NCBI GenBank assembly: GCA_040223695.1
Contig: JAVKFU010000018.1
Location: 62,001 to 126,000 of the forward strand
DNA from: Deltaproteobacteria bacterium
GTDB lineage: Bacteria; Desulfobacterota_D; UBA1144; Nemesobacterales; UBA2774
Reading direction: 5' to 3'
DNA: 64,000 nucleotides
The position numbers and the translations under genes were made by a program. Positions 43,331 to 46,132 of this stretch are shown piece after piece. Below the pieces are notes generated by a model. The model was not told the origin of the DNA and searched no databases. It saw nothing but the letters and a program-made list of their open reading frames with translations. The stretch's first letter is position 1. Every line of letters starts with the position of its first letter.

Positions 43331-43927
43331 TTATTTTTCAGATTCGCATCCTTCGTATTCACCCAATTCTGCAAGATGAGATTTTATCTCCTCTTTCAGC
43401 TCCTCGCTTCCCGAAGCGGATTTGCAGGCTTCCGTCAGATATTTACGCGCTTTACCCCTGTCGCCGGTCTTCAAATAGAGAACCCCTACCGTGTCGAGGG
43501 CGTATGCGGGGACAGGTTCTTGTAACTTGGTAGCGGCGAGCAGATAGCTCAATCCCTCCTCAAGGTTTTCCCCTGTCTCTATATATGCTGATGCTAGGTT
43601 ATTTGCCGCCTCGATGTTGGCCGGGTCTTTTTTCAGCGCTTTCTTGTAGTACTTTACAGCTTTTTTATATTTGCCCAGTTTTAAATAAACGTTTCCCGTG
43701 TTTACGATTGGAGTGACAAGCTCTCCGTCTATAGCGGAGGCCCTCTTGTATTCCCTGAGCGCGAGCTCGTGCTTGCCCTCTCTTTCGTATATGACTCCCA
43801 GGTTATTGTGCTCTTCAGCGGTGAGCGGGTCTTTCATGAAATAGGACCCGTAAAGCGAAGCGCATCCCGGCAAAGTTATGCTGAGAGCAATAAAAAGTAT
43901 AAAAAGTAAAATCCGGGATTTTTTCAC
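43331..43927 (-). CDS. TPR lipoprotein, partner of the C39 peptidase gene
   Basis: Start GTG 43927 shares GTGA with the stop of the C39 gene and gives MKKSRILLFILFIALSITLP followed by GC. That is a signal peptide with lipobox cysteine at 22; starting at 43966 would spoil it. The 198-residue protein has three to four TPR motifs, such as AEEHNNLGVIYEREGKHELALREYKR, whose first part is the clearest. Another is NTGNVYLKLGKYKKAVKYYK, and a third is AANNLASAYIETGENLEEG. In Pseudomonas PA2778-type proteins the C39 peptidase and TPR parts are, as I recall, one polypeptide; here they are two lipoproteins made from coupled genes. It likely sits in the outer membrane as an interaction scaffold. Confidence 0.8.
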   Translation of the reverse strand: MKKSRILLFILFIALSITLPGCASLYGSYFMKDPLTAEEHNNLGVIYEREGKHELALREYKRASAIDGELVTPIVNTGNVYLKLGKYKKAVKYYKKALKKDPANIEAANNLASAYIETGENLEEGLSYLLAATKLQEPVPAYALDTVGVLYLKTGDRGKARKYLTEACKSASGSEELKEEIKSHLAELGEYEGCESEK

Positions 43928-44481
43928 TTTGAGATGACCAGCATCAGGCGGTTCATTTTTTCCCACTGCCTGTCGAGCTTATCGAAGCCCATTTCCCTTC
44001 CGCCTTCGTCCCCGGTGTGTAGAATGACCGTTTCCCCGTTTTCACTGTAGCCGTAGGCGACATAGTAATGAGGGACGCTCACCTTCCACATGCCCCTGTC
44101 AACTAGCATAATTACGGGCTTGCCGCTGTCTATGGCCGATTTAATCCCCTCTATGCTTCCGTTTACGGCTTTAACCTTGTAGCCCCGGTCGCGGGCGTAA
44201 TTCTCCATATCGGAAATGAGGGCTCCTTCGAGCTTGGGTATATAAATCTCCTCTGAGACTTCTTCCTGGCTCACGTCGTCGCCGTAAAACTGTATCACTG
44301 ATGCCATCGACGCAGGACCGCAGAAATTATCTTTTTGCTTTACGAAGGGCACGCCCTCAATAACCGTTATGTCTCTTTCCGGGCGGAATTCATCCTGCCC
44401 CTGCTGTTTTTGAGTGCATCCCGCCCATAGAAGAGCGGTAAGCATGAAAATTATAAACTTGATGTAATTACCACCGTACAT
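43924..44481 (-). CDS. PA2778-like C39-family cysteine peptidase, lipoprotein
   Basis: 185 residues with signal peptide and lipobox LLWAGC (Cys22). The peptidase domain shows the Cys motif KQKDNFCGPASMASVIQFYG (Cys54), His in VSVPHYYVAYGYS (His138) and a following ILHTGDE, the Cys-His-Asp order of C39/papain-like enzymes. Unlike bacteriocin-processing C39 domains it is not attached to an ABC transporter. It sits between a PA2779-like membrane protein gene (7 bases upstream) and the TPR lipoprotein (GTGA overlap). That matches the PA2778/PA2779 pair of pseudomonads, whose function is unknown. Substrate unknown. Confidence 0.8.
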   Translation of the reverse strand: MYGGNYIKFIIFMLTALLWAGCTQKQQGQDEFRPERDITVIEGVPFVKQKDNFCGPASMASVIQFYGDDVSQEEVSEEIYIPKLEGALISDMENYARDRGYKVKAVNGSIEGIKSAIDSGKPVIMLVDRGMWKVSVPHYYVAYGYSENGETVILHTGDEGGREMGFDKLDRQWEKMNRLMLVISK

Positions 44482-44488
44482 AAATCAT

Positions 44489-44890
44489 CTATACTCTCTT
44501 GTAAAGGAATATTATTAAGAGAACGAGCGCCACGACCACAAGAATCGTTATCAGGATTCCGATGCCCGCGTCACCACCAGCCGGCATTCGGTCCGCGAGT
44601 GAGGCCATTTGATGCACCTGCTCGTCACTCATTTGATTGAGCTTCTGGGAAACCTCTTCCGGAGTGAGGCCGTGACTCGACAATTTTTCAGCGACGATCT
44701 TGTTTTCAAGGGCTCTTCTAACCTTGATTTCGTCTATTTCCCTCTTGGTTGAGGCGTTGTGTTCCGGTGAGATCATTTGAGAATCGACTGTAGCCGCATT
44801 CACGCTTGCGGTTATGAGCGATACCGGCGTGAATGTTATCAGTATCAACACTACAATCGGAATATGGATTTTTCCTGAGTAAAAATTCAT
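44489..44890 (-). CDS. PA2779-family membrane protein
   Basis: 133 residues. An N-terminal signal or anchor (HIPIVVLILITFTPVSLIT) is followed by a helical extracytoplasmic part (REIDEIKVRRALENKIVAEKL). Next come LSSHGLTPEEVSQKLNQMSD and EQVHQMASLADRMPAGGDAG. A C-terminal membrane helix (IGILITILVVVALVLLIIFL) ends in YKRV. The LTPEEV-x-x-KLNQMSDEQVHQMA pattern and the C-terminal helix after a glycine-rich turn match the PA2779 family as I know it. GAGGAGG precedes the ATG. First gene of the three-gene set; the family pairing with a C39 peptidase is conserved, suggesting a peptidase-membrane-substrate or anchor relationship (inference). Confidence 0.78.
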   Translation of the reverse strand: MNFYSGKIHIPIVVLILITFTPVSLITASVNAATVDSQMISPEHNASTKREIDEIKVRRALENKIVAEKLSSHGLTPEEVSQKLNQMSDEQVHQMASLADRMPAGGDAGIGILITILVVVALVLLIIFLYKRV

Positions 44891-45136: not shown

Positions 45137-46132
45137 TCAGGGTTCTGGCGAAGGCTCTGGAGACGGTGATGGCTCAGGTGACGGAAACGGAGATGGGGGT
45201 AAGCTTTCTATAATTTCCTCGCACCCGCCGGTGTCGATTAACGCATTTCCGTTTACATCAAACGTGTCTTCACCCGAATCAAAAATACAGGCATCGGCAA
45301 AGAATGAGATGCTTGAATTACCCTCCGCACGCGCTCCGTTCTCAAAGGCCGATACATTTAAATCACCGTTTGCCTCCACTACGACATCGGCGTTGCCGCG
45401 GGTTCTGATGCCGTCCTCGGTGGCGTCGCAGGTTATGTCACCGTCAACCGTAAGTAGTGTCACCTGCGACGTTCCTCTCGCGTCGATGCACCTATTGCAA
45501 TTGGTCAGTACGATGTCCTCGGGGTCTATTATCAAGTTGCAGTTGCCTGCCGTTCTGATACAGTCCTCTCCCCCTCCGTCAATGATGATATCCTCGTTCA
45601 CATTCTTGGTAATCTCGAGGGTCCCGTTTTCACAGCGGATCGGACCTTCCACTTCGGAGATTTCGACAATATCGACTTCATCTCCGGGAGGTGAATTGAG
45701 ATCTATAGCGACTACTATTTCTAGGATGGAGCCTTCCTCGACCAGAATGCTCACAGAAACCGTAGTTCCGTCTACGTCGAAGATTAGGGTCACATTTTCA
45801 GCCGAATCCAGTAAAAAGCTGAGCGAGAAACTTCCGTCAGCGTCTGTTATGTCCGTATCCACCGTGACTCCGTCTATAATTGCCGTAACCGTGATACCGT
45901 CCTGAGCTTTTGCCTCTTTTATCAGACTCAGAAGCTTCATCAGCTTTGCGAACCTTACTGAGTTCGCGTTTCCTTCGGTCATGGCGACCACAGTTGAAAC
46001 CCTTCCGTTAACAACCGTTGTCTGGCCGGTCCGGTTCTCGCCGTTGTCCCCTCCTCCGTCACAAGCGAGGTGAGTAATCGACGGCACTAGTGCCAGGGCC
46101 AGGATTATTAAAATATTTCTTGCCTTCTTCAT
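45137..46132 (-). CDS. Putative lipoprotein with beta-helix-like repeats and a Pro-Ser-Glu tail
   Basis: 331 residues. Signal peptide with lipobox-like THLAC (Cys24), then a Gly/Asn/Asp spacer. Residues about 40-150 resemble a carboxypeptidase-regulatory/Ig-like domain (TDITDADGSFSLSFLLDSAE). Residues about 160-300 are short repeated strands with recurrent D-G/N-A-D turns: EDCIRTAGNCNLIID, CIDARGTSQVTLLTVDGDIT, DGIRTRGNADVVVEANGDLN, DTFDVNGNALID. This is like the carbohydrate-binding DUF4353 beta-helix proteins. The end is a PSPEP repeat of about 20 residues. Strong SD AAGGAGGAG. Function unknown; surface binding of a glycan is possible. Cysteines in the repeat region may pair as disulfides. 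Confidence 0.68.
   Translation of the reverse strand: MKKARNILIILALALVPSITHLACDGGGDNGENRTGQTTVVNGRVSTVVAMTEGNANSVRFAKLMKLLSLIKEAKAQDGITVTAIIDGVTVDTDITDADGSFSLSFLLDSAENVTLIFDVDGTTVSVSILVEEGSILEIVVAIDLNSPPGDEVDIVEISEVEGPIRCENGTLEITKNVNEDIIIDGGGEDCIRTAGNCNLIIDPEDIVLTNCNRCIDARGTSQVTLLTVDGDITCDATEDGIRTRGNADVVVEANGDLNVSAFENGARAEGNSSISFFADACIFDSGEDTFDVNGNALIDTGGCEEIIESLPPSPFPSPEPSPSPEPSPEP

What the first reader, a model, noticed from the sequence alone, without database searches (positions are those of the whole stretch)
43331..44890. PA2779/PA2778-type system with the peptidase and TPR parts split into two lipoproteins
The PA2779-like membrane protein, C39-type peptidase lipoprotein and TPR lipoprotein lie in one operon with a GTGA overlap. 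In pseudomonads, as I recall, the peptidase and TPR are one protein. The split, with a lipobox gained by each half, shows the two domains can act as separate outer-membrane-anchored subunits. The function of this conserved set is unknown.
Basis: partly seen in the sequence, partly recalled or inferred. Interest (0 to 1): 0.5.

Follow-up and report, generated by a model that had tools for sequence, protein, structure and literature searches.

The report
Split C39-like peptidase and partner operon
A small three-gene set that many diderm bacteria carry, with a membrane-anchored protein, a protease and a protein-binding repeat protein, is here made with the last two as separate proteins instead of one, and its protease looks built to cut the anchored protein loose from the membrane at a glycine pair, which remains to be tested.

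Summary
On the minus strand, 44890-43331 encodes a PA2779-family protein, a C39-type peptidase lipoprotein and a TPR lipoprotein, the last two overlapping by GTGA. The fused form exists: 38 of 39 gammaproteobacterial genomes with the peptidase have it as one frame, the 39th in two contig pieces. The split is not peculiar to this genome: among 60 genomes (this one included) 17 have the peptidase, the same 17 have PA2779, all 17 split. "A lipobox gained by each half" is not supported: the peptidase's lipobox Cys aligns in 83 of 85 members, fused ones included. Fission or fusion is open. My reading: a periplasmic double-glycine-type peptidase with its dedicated target. PA2779 carries G-[G/A/S] in 116 of 123 members just before a C-terminal membrane helix; the nearest solved folds include ComA and PCAT peptidases; the genes co-occur; four unlinked PA2779 copies keep the motif. 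Against it: the triad Asp is Ser/Thr, leader positions -4 and -7 differ, no cleavage is shown.

The parts
44489..44890 (-). PA2779-family protein (DUF6627), 133 aa: signal peptide, helical periplasmic domain, A-G-G motif, C-terminal membrane helix, KRV end
   Evidence: conservation
44573..44581 (-). codons of Ala104-Gly105-Gly106, the proposed cleavage motif
   Evidence: position; G in 82 of 83 and A in 80 of 83 aligned members; G-[G/A/S] in 116 of 123
44501..44566 (-). C-terminal hydrophobic segment (about residues 109-130)
   Evidence: sequence; in the family the best 17-residue segment begins a median of 2 residues after the motif; helix 76-100 of the mature protein in the model
43924..44481 (-). 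C39-type cysteine peptidase lipoprotein, 185 aa; Cys54, His138, Gln49 present, triad Asp replaced by Thr156
   Evidence: fold of a relative's domain
44416..44418 (-). codon of the lipobox Cys22 of the peptidase
   Evidence: Cys aligned in 83 of 85 members
43331..43927 (-). TPR lipoprotein, 198 aa from the GTG start in the GTGA overlap
43862..43864 (-). codon of the lipobox Cys22 of the TPR lipoprotein
43924..43927 (-). GTGA overlap of peptidase stop and TPR start

Best explanation
The three genes encode one envelope module. The PA2779-like protein is exported by its signal peptide and stays held by a C-terminal membrane helix, its helical domain in the periplasm. The C39-type lipoprotein is a periplasmic cysteine peptidase that works like a double-glycine peptidase and is dedicated to it: it docks on the helical domain and cuts after Ala-Gly-(Gly/Ala/Ser), about two residues before the membrane helix, freeing the domain from its anchor. 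The TPR lipoprotein is the peptidase's scaffold or adaptor; in most relatives a TPR part is fused to the peptidase, here it is a coupled separate subunit with its own lipid anchor. Shown: the genes, families, conserved Cys/His, conserved motif, linkage and co-occurrence; predicted: the fold. Inferred: docking, cleavage, the site, the TPR role and the membrane in which each part sits. What the released domain does is unknown.
For: Peptidase domain and PA2779 occur in the same 17 of 60 genomes (one search lists matches down to about E 5.6e-6, and below that nothing was seen). In 140 gammaproteobacterial genomes all 39 with the peptidase also have PA2779; of the 2 others with a PA2779 match one is cut off at a contig end and one is under the cut-off. 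In 80 loci found by the peptidase alone, 76 have PA2779 upstream on the same strand; 3 of the 4 misses begin within 90 bases of a contig start, and in the fourth genome PA2779 lies elsewhere. G-[G/A/S] in 116 of 123 members, a median of 2 residues before the hydrophobic segment; by one common measure 114 of 123 against 20 of 204 other hydrophobic segments in the same loci (members are related, so this is no probability). Cys54 and His138 in 85 of 85, Gln49 in 84 of 85. The nearest solved folds include double-glycine peptidases: ComA Z 19.3, PCAT1 Z 19.0, LahT with its leader Z 18.9, tied with the C39-like 3erv (Z 19.1) and PeiR (Z 18.6); by profile ComA is the best solved match, E 2.7e-10. In 6 of 39 gammaproteobacterial genomes there are more PA2779 places than peptidase places, and the 4 unlinked extra copies read keep AG[GA]. 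PA2779 helices have block means of 73-90 pLDDT when read in one chain with the peptidase and 51-63 alone. FapD is a precedent for an active periplasmic C39-type peptidase (PMC5557850, passages).
Against: The catalytic Asp is Ser or Thr in 84 of 85 members (aligned to Asp of ComA), so activity may be altered or lost. In C39 leaders of known structure positions -4, -7 and -12 are hydrophobic (PMC6959990 and PMC6363468, passages); in PA2779 -12 is hydrophobic in 85 of 85, but -7 is Asp or Glu in 59 of 83 and -4 is Pro in 71 of 83. Seven of 123 members lack G-[G/A/S]. A Pro-Ala-Gly-Gly turn before a membrane helix could be a plain helix break. The pLDDT comparison uses different query sequences, the membrane helix scores lower in the joint chain than alone, and no coordinates or contact scores could be read. 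An outer-membrane peptidase would have to reach the inner membrane.
Confidence: 0.5

Rival explanations
1. PA2779 is not cut but is a partner: an anchor or substrate-like inhibitor that places its Ala-Gly-Gly turn in the peptidase's cleft and holds it inactive or localised, as staphostatins do with a Gly in staphopain (recalled, from no call).
For: The same linkage, co-occurrence and motif conservation. The family's loss of the triad Asp fits a slow or held enzyme.
Against: Extra and unlinked PA2779 copies that keep the motif fit several targets of one enzyme better than several inhibitors, though they do not exclude it.
Confidence: 0.2
2. The peptidase acts on another target, such as cell-wall peptides or a secreted protein, and PA2779 and the TPR protein only hold or guide it. 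The conserved glycine motif is a helix break before the membrane.
For: Similar folds include pseudomurein endoisopeptidase PeiR (Z 18.6, tied with the top rows). Beyond the module no gene was seen to recur widely beside it, so a target may be encoded elsewhere.
Against: The G-[G/A/S] pattern at exactly that place, and the near-perfect pairing with PA2779.
Confidence: 0.2
3. The domain is a pseudo-peptidase that only binds glycine-turn segments, like the C39-like domains without catalytic activity of some type 1 secretion systems (mentioned in PMC5557850, passages).
For: Triad Asp replaced by Ser/Thr in 84 of 85.
Against: Cys and His in 85 of 85 and Gln in 84 of 85. Serine in the third place is described for another papain-like amidase effector (printed as Tea3 in PMC10318531, passages).
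Confidence: 0.1

Closest known systems
PA2778/PA2779 pair of Pseudomonas and other diderms (NF033920, NF033919/DUF6627)
   Same: Same neighbour pair, same peptidase domain and signature, same AG[G/A/S]-membrane-helix protein
   Different: Here peptidase and TPR are two genes, each with a lipobox; the peptidase scores under the NF033920 cut-off. No Pseudomonas locus itself was read here; the fused form was read in other Pseudomonadota
C39 peptidase domains of PCAT/bacteriocin ABC transporters (ComA, PCAT1, LahT)
   Same: Fold, Cys, His and Gln; a Gly-[Gly/Ala/Ser] motif in the partner
   Different: Signal peptide and lipobox instead of a transporter; triad Asp is Ser/Thr; the motif lies before a C-terminal membrane helix, not at the end of an N-terminal leader; positions -4 and -7 differ
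FapD of the Pseudomonas amyloid system
   Same: Free-standing C39-type peptidase active in the periplasm, essential Cys, target unclear with GG/GA motifs suspected (PMC5557850, passages)
   Different: Encoded in the fap operon with amyloid genes; no PA2779 or TPR partner appears in the passages seen; sequences were not compared here
GlyGly-CTERM and rhombosortase
   Same: Glycine motif, hydrophobic helix and (in this clade) basic end at the C-terminus; one enzyme with one or more targets (titles and starts of abstracts of PMC3237569 and PMC6219818 in the listing)
   Different: Enzyme is a C39-type lipoprotein, not an intramembrane rhomboid; no rhombosortase over the cut-off in this genome; GlyGly-CTERM not among the window protein's matches

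Membership tests
PA2779 family (NF033919) | Score over the curated cut-off | tested here: met
   87.9 bits against 40
PA2779 family (NF033919) | Encoded beside a PA2778-type peptidase | tested here: met
PA2778 family (NF033920) | Score over the curated cut-off | tested here: not met
   Peptidase 111.8 bits, TPR protein 31.4, cut-off 150; 0 of 60 genomes over it
PA2778 family (NF033920) | C39 domain and TPR tail in one chain | tested here: not met
   Two genes; 10 of 10 fused relatives scanned match the model over positions 1-2 to 239-255 in one stretch
PA2778 family (NF033920) | Same peptidase lineage: [H/R/Q]-[S/T]-G in place of the Asp, with Cys and His | tested here: met
   84 of 85; split, solo and fused rows lie on one side of a branch from 4 outgroup C39 rows, support 92
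Peptidase family C39 | Fold and profile match | tested here: met
   Pfam over gathering for the window protein; model of relative L029: ComA 3k8u Z 19.3, rmsd 1.7, 131 residues
Peptidase family C39 | Cys-His-Asp triad with Gln | tested here: not met
   Cys, His and Gln present, Asp replaced by Thr156
Peptidase family C39 | Cleaves after a double-glycine-type motif | not testable with these tools
   Needs an assay; a candidate motif is present
Double-glycine leader | Gly at -2 and Gly/Ala/Ser at -1 | tested here: met
   Window AGG; 116 of 123 members
Double-glycine leader | Hydrophobic -4, -7 and -12 | tested here: not met
   -12 met in 85 of 85; strictly hydrophobic at -7 and at -4 in 0 of 83
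GlyGly-CTERM/rhombosortase | Rhombosortase in the genome | tested here: not met
   One rhomboid match of 33.2 bits, cut-off 84; the assembly is 95.57% complete

The most novel reading that the evidence does not exclude
A sorting or release system of its own kind: a periplasmic C39-type peptidase lipoprotein with a TPR subunit recognises a C-terminal tag (helix, Ala-Gly-[Gly/Ala/Ser], membrane helix) and cuts proteins loose from the inner membrane, a counterpart of rhombosortase and exosortase built from a bacteriocin-leader peptidase. In this lineage enzyme and adaptor are still, or again, separate subunits.
Probability: 0.25. Interest if true: 0.75.

Novelty: new variant of a known kind. Interest (0 to 1): 0.5.

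Why it matters
The peptidase/PA2779 pair was found here in several diderm phyla, including Pseudomonadota, Thermodesulfobacteriota, Nitrospirota and Bdellovibrionota, and the searches of the held open-access library showed no functional study of it. A concrete site, enzyme and partner make its function directly testable, and the split form gives a natural way to purify peptidase and TPR subunit apart.

Tried and rejected
Lipobox gained by each half: rejected for the peptidase. Fission as the clear direction: the outgroup-rooted quick tree put the split forms at the base and the 64 fused rows on one side of a branch (support 99), but holding the 18 split rows together gave a better likelihood (p-AU 0.665), and holding fused plus outgroup together also did (p-AU 0.646). 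Outgroups are four and on long branches. Open.

Origin of the TPR protein from the fused tail: not shown. In this genome the NF033920 tail matches another protein (contig C15, 5.2e-9) better than the operon's TPR protein (9.4e-7).

PA2779 as a Nif11- or NHLP-type leader: no such family among the 25 listed of 66 (NCBIfam) and 25 listed of 73 (Pfam) for 70 members scanned; the unlisted ones were not seen. A conserved further neighbour: in 82 loci the two widest gene clusters are the peptidase (59 loci) and PA2779 (48); the other wide ones stay within this clade (14 loci with TPR, 13 of them of this clade; 11 or fewer for neighbours that look by eye like coaD, rsmD, fmt and an aminotransferase) or are small; one cluster in 11 other loci, whose printed example overlaps the module on the opposite strand, was not resolved. 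Canonical spacing of leader residues: does not fit. Structure of PA2779 alone: mean pLDDT 60.4, not searched further.

Not done: a fair control of the one-chain model with the same query alone (both fold jobs used); contacts in the model (coordinates not given).

Rows dropped before counts: 2 of 85 PA2779 rows end at contig edges, leaving 83, 2 of 125, and matches under 40 bits were not added. Deinococcus L024 was left out of the 85 peptidases. L096 is counted as fused in the tree although a contig end cuts its tail. Three Nitrospirota loci (L040, L041, L051) show no TPR by the split-TPR profile; L051 ends at the contig edge.

Full report
What is there. The minus strand from 44890 to 43331 holds three genes in a row: a 133-aa PA2779-family protein (44890-44489), a 185-aa C39-type peptidase lipoprotein (44481-43924) and a 198-aa TPR lipoprotein (43927-43331) that begins with the GTG of a GTGA overlap. 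Family scans agree: NF033919 87.9 bits (cut-off 40) and DUF6627 for the first; Peptidase_C39_2 and Peptidase_C39 over gathering for the second; many TPR models for the third. Against the fused PA2778 model NF033920 (255 positions) the peptidase covers 2-144 (111.8 bits) and the TPR protein 166-240 (31.4 bits), both under the cut-off of 150. A search of the window's own genome gave one place for the peptidase and one for PA2779.

Where the split occurs. Of 60 genomes (this one and its relatives), 17 have PA2779. The peptidase part of NF033920 is found in the same 17; in the others the listed matches, down to about E 5.6e-6, cover only the TPR part. The 57 genomes of the phylum give the same 17 for PA2779. 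In all 17 the peptidase and the TPR protein are two genes. One of the 17 genomes (G034) has its PA2779 broken over contig ends. Named relatives are metagenome assemblies called Candidatus Dadabacteria, Thermodesulfobacteriota or Deltaproteobacteria. One further locus, L038, is split too, with two PA2779 copies. Three Nitrospirota loci have the peptidase without a TPR part; one of them ends at the contig edge. The other 62 of 80 loci kept from the collection scan (which found 543 relatives) carry a longer chain, one of them cut by a contig end. Ten of these were scanned: 10 of 10 match NF033920 from position 1-2 to 239-255 in one stretch, and 9 of 10 have Pfam TPR matches. In 140 gammaproteobacterial genomes 39 have the peptidase over the cut-off; 38 have C39 and TPR parts in one frame, and in G142 the gene lies in two pieces on two contigs. 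Two plasmids carry PA2779 followed by one long annotated PA2778 gene. So the fused form is widespread and the split form is a stable property of this clade. No Pseudomonas locus itself was read.

Lipoboxes and coupling. The lipobox Cys of the peptidase aligns in 83 of 85 unique members; 76 of 85 pass a strict pattern (the window's own fails it because of Trp at -3). The residue after the Cys is in no case Asp, which by the E. coli rule (recalled) points to the outer membrane; this is weak in such a distant lineage. Two of 18 split peptidases, L017 and L002, have no such Cys, while all 17 split TPR proteins, and L038, have one by eye. The NTGA overlap with the TPR frame in phase is present in 13 of 15 named split loci and in the window (counted). 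Hence the claim that each half gained a lipobox fails for the peptidase, and the anchor kept in every split case is on the TPR protein.

History. In a tree of 89 peptidase domains (143 columns) the 64 fused rows are one side of a branch (support 99) and, rooted on four distant C39 rows, the split rows form the base. The AU tests do not reject a single split clade (p 0.665) nor fused plus outgroup together (p 0.646), and both constrained trees were more likely than the free quick tree. The direction of change is open. Nor is it shown that the split TPR protein and the fused tail are the same domain: the match is generic.

The enzyme. Cys54 and His138 are in 85 of 85, Gln49 in 84 of 85, while the place of the catalytic Asp holds Ser or Thr in 84 of 85, in the motif [H/R/Q]-[S/T]-G; a profile alignment to ComA puts Asp there. 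The predicted domain of the relative L029 (pLDDT 92-98 per block of ten) is closest to ComA (3k8u, Z 19.3, rmsd 1.7 over 131 residues), the C39-like 3erv (Z 19.1), PCAT1 (Z 19.0), LahT with leader (6mpz, Z 18.9) and pseudomurein endoisopeptidase (Z 18.6), ahead of staphopain (16.7). Rows within one Z unit are tied.

The partner. Among the aligned PA2779 proteins the most conserved places are Gly74 (84 of 85), Gly105 (82 of 83) and Ala104 (80 of 83). The motif reads G-G in 54, G-A in 24, G-S in 1 and other in 4 of 83, and with 40 more members G-G 73, G-A 34, G-S 9, other 7 of 123. The hydrophobic segment begins a median of 2 residues later, and 121 of 122 have a best 17-residue mean hydropathy of 1.6 or more. 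In 204 hydrophobic segments of other proteins in the same loci, G-[GAS] stands at the edge in 20 and [AS]G[GAS] in 4, against 114 and 95 of 123 PA2779 proteins. The members are related, so this is an illustration and not a test. [quoted passage not shown] PA2779 has hydrophobic -12, -15 and -20 in 85 of 85 (-15 counting Ala), but -7 is Asp, Glu or another small or polar residue and -4 is mostly Pro. The motif fits; the docking pattern is not the same.

Pairing. In the 80 loci found through the peptidase alone, 76 have PA2779 upstream on the same strand. Three misses lie at contig starts; in the fourth (L088) the genome carries PA2779 elsewhere. In gammaproteobacteria 41 of 140 genomes match PA2779 (40 over the cut-off); the 39 with peptidase are all among them. 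In 6 of the 39 (G089, G099, G135, G168, G169, G200) PA2779 places outnumber peptidase places. Four unlinked copies, in fetched stretches of 4.3-5.0 kb without a peptidase (L159, L161, L162, L164), keep AGG or AGA; one of them (G195) has a stop inside the matched stretch. No other gene was seen to recur widely beside the module, with one unresolved cluster. Two Nitrospirota genomes also have distant PA2779-like proteins under the cut-off, two of which carry an AGGG further along and one of which has no such motif.

Docking hint. In the one-chain model (L029, stop read as Ser) the PA2779 helices have block means of 73-90 pLDDT, whole chain 84.4 and pTM 0.65. The window's PA2779 alone has 51-63 over the same helices and pTM 0.28. 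This fits docking on the peptidase, but the queries and alignments differ, the membrane helix goes the other way, and no contacts could be read. I give it little weight.

Mechanism and verdict. I think it most likely (0.5) that the peptidase cuts PA2779 at the motif and frees its helical domain, with the TPR protein as scaffold. FapD shows that a free C39-type peptidase can work in the periplasm and that its Cys matters, while its target was left open (PMC5557850, passages).

Literature. The held library has little on this pair: BswR was found through an insertion between PA2779 and PA2780 (PMC3985676, passage); a PA2779 family gene is in a table of 26 genes chosen from 39 that are in the top 3% of expression in P. 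stutzeri DSM4166 under all conditions tested (PMC10155442, passages); PA2778 is listed with a lost start codon in clone CHA (PMC3697988, passage). These are the 3 of 9 papers that I opened; the other 6 are clinical or epidemiological by title. Of 10 papers I saw passages of 3 (the third being PMC10155442 again), none about this pair's function. One search listed 2, of which I saw passages of one. NCBI's own family descriptions could not be read, so the cleavage idea may already stand there.

Noticed in passing
45137-46132 (minus strand): A 331-aa lipoprotein-like gene with a Pro/Ser/Glu-rich C-terminal tail lies upstream of the operon on the same strand; a cluster of 4 named loci of this clade (L027, L029, L032, L034) holds a protein that begins alike, and it has no match over a cut-off.
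   Followed up: partly
L036:6380-6500: In Bacterium HR37 peptidase and TPR lie in one frame with a single TGA between them, the nearest thing seen to a fusion intermediate.
   Followed up: partly
L122, L123, L124: Nitrospirota genomes carry distant PA2779-like proteins without a peptidase in the fetched stretch; two of the three have a long linker and an AGGG nearer the membrane helix.
   Followed up: partly
L121: A Nitrospinaceae genome has a second, diverged PA2779 plus fused PA2778 operon.
   Followed up: no
L018-L021 (G034): One relative has PA2779 broken at contig ends at about the same point in two copies, which suggests a duplicated stretch that the assembly could not resolve.
   Followed up: no
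PA2779 C-termini, e.g. L058, L060, L109: In many Pseudomonadota and Thermodesulfobacteriota the membrane helix is followed by a conserved stretch like TD-x-x-G-x-T-x-[VI]-[FY]-x-F that is absent from this clade.
   Followed up: no
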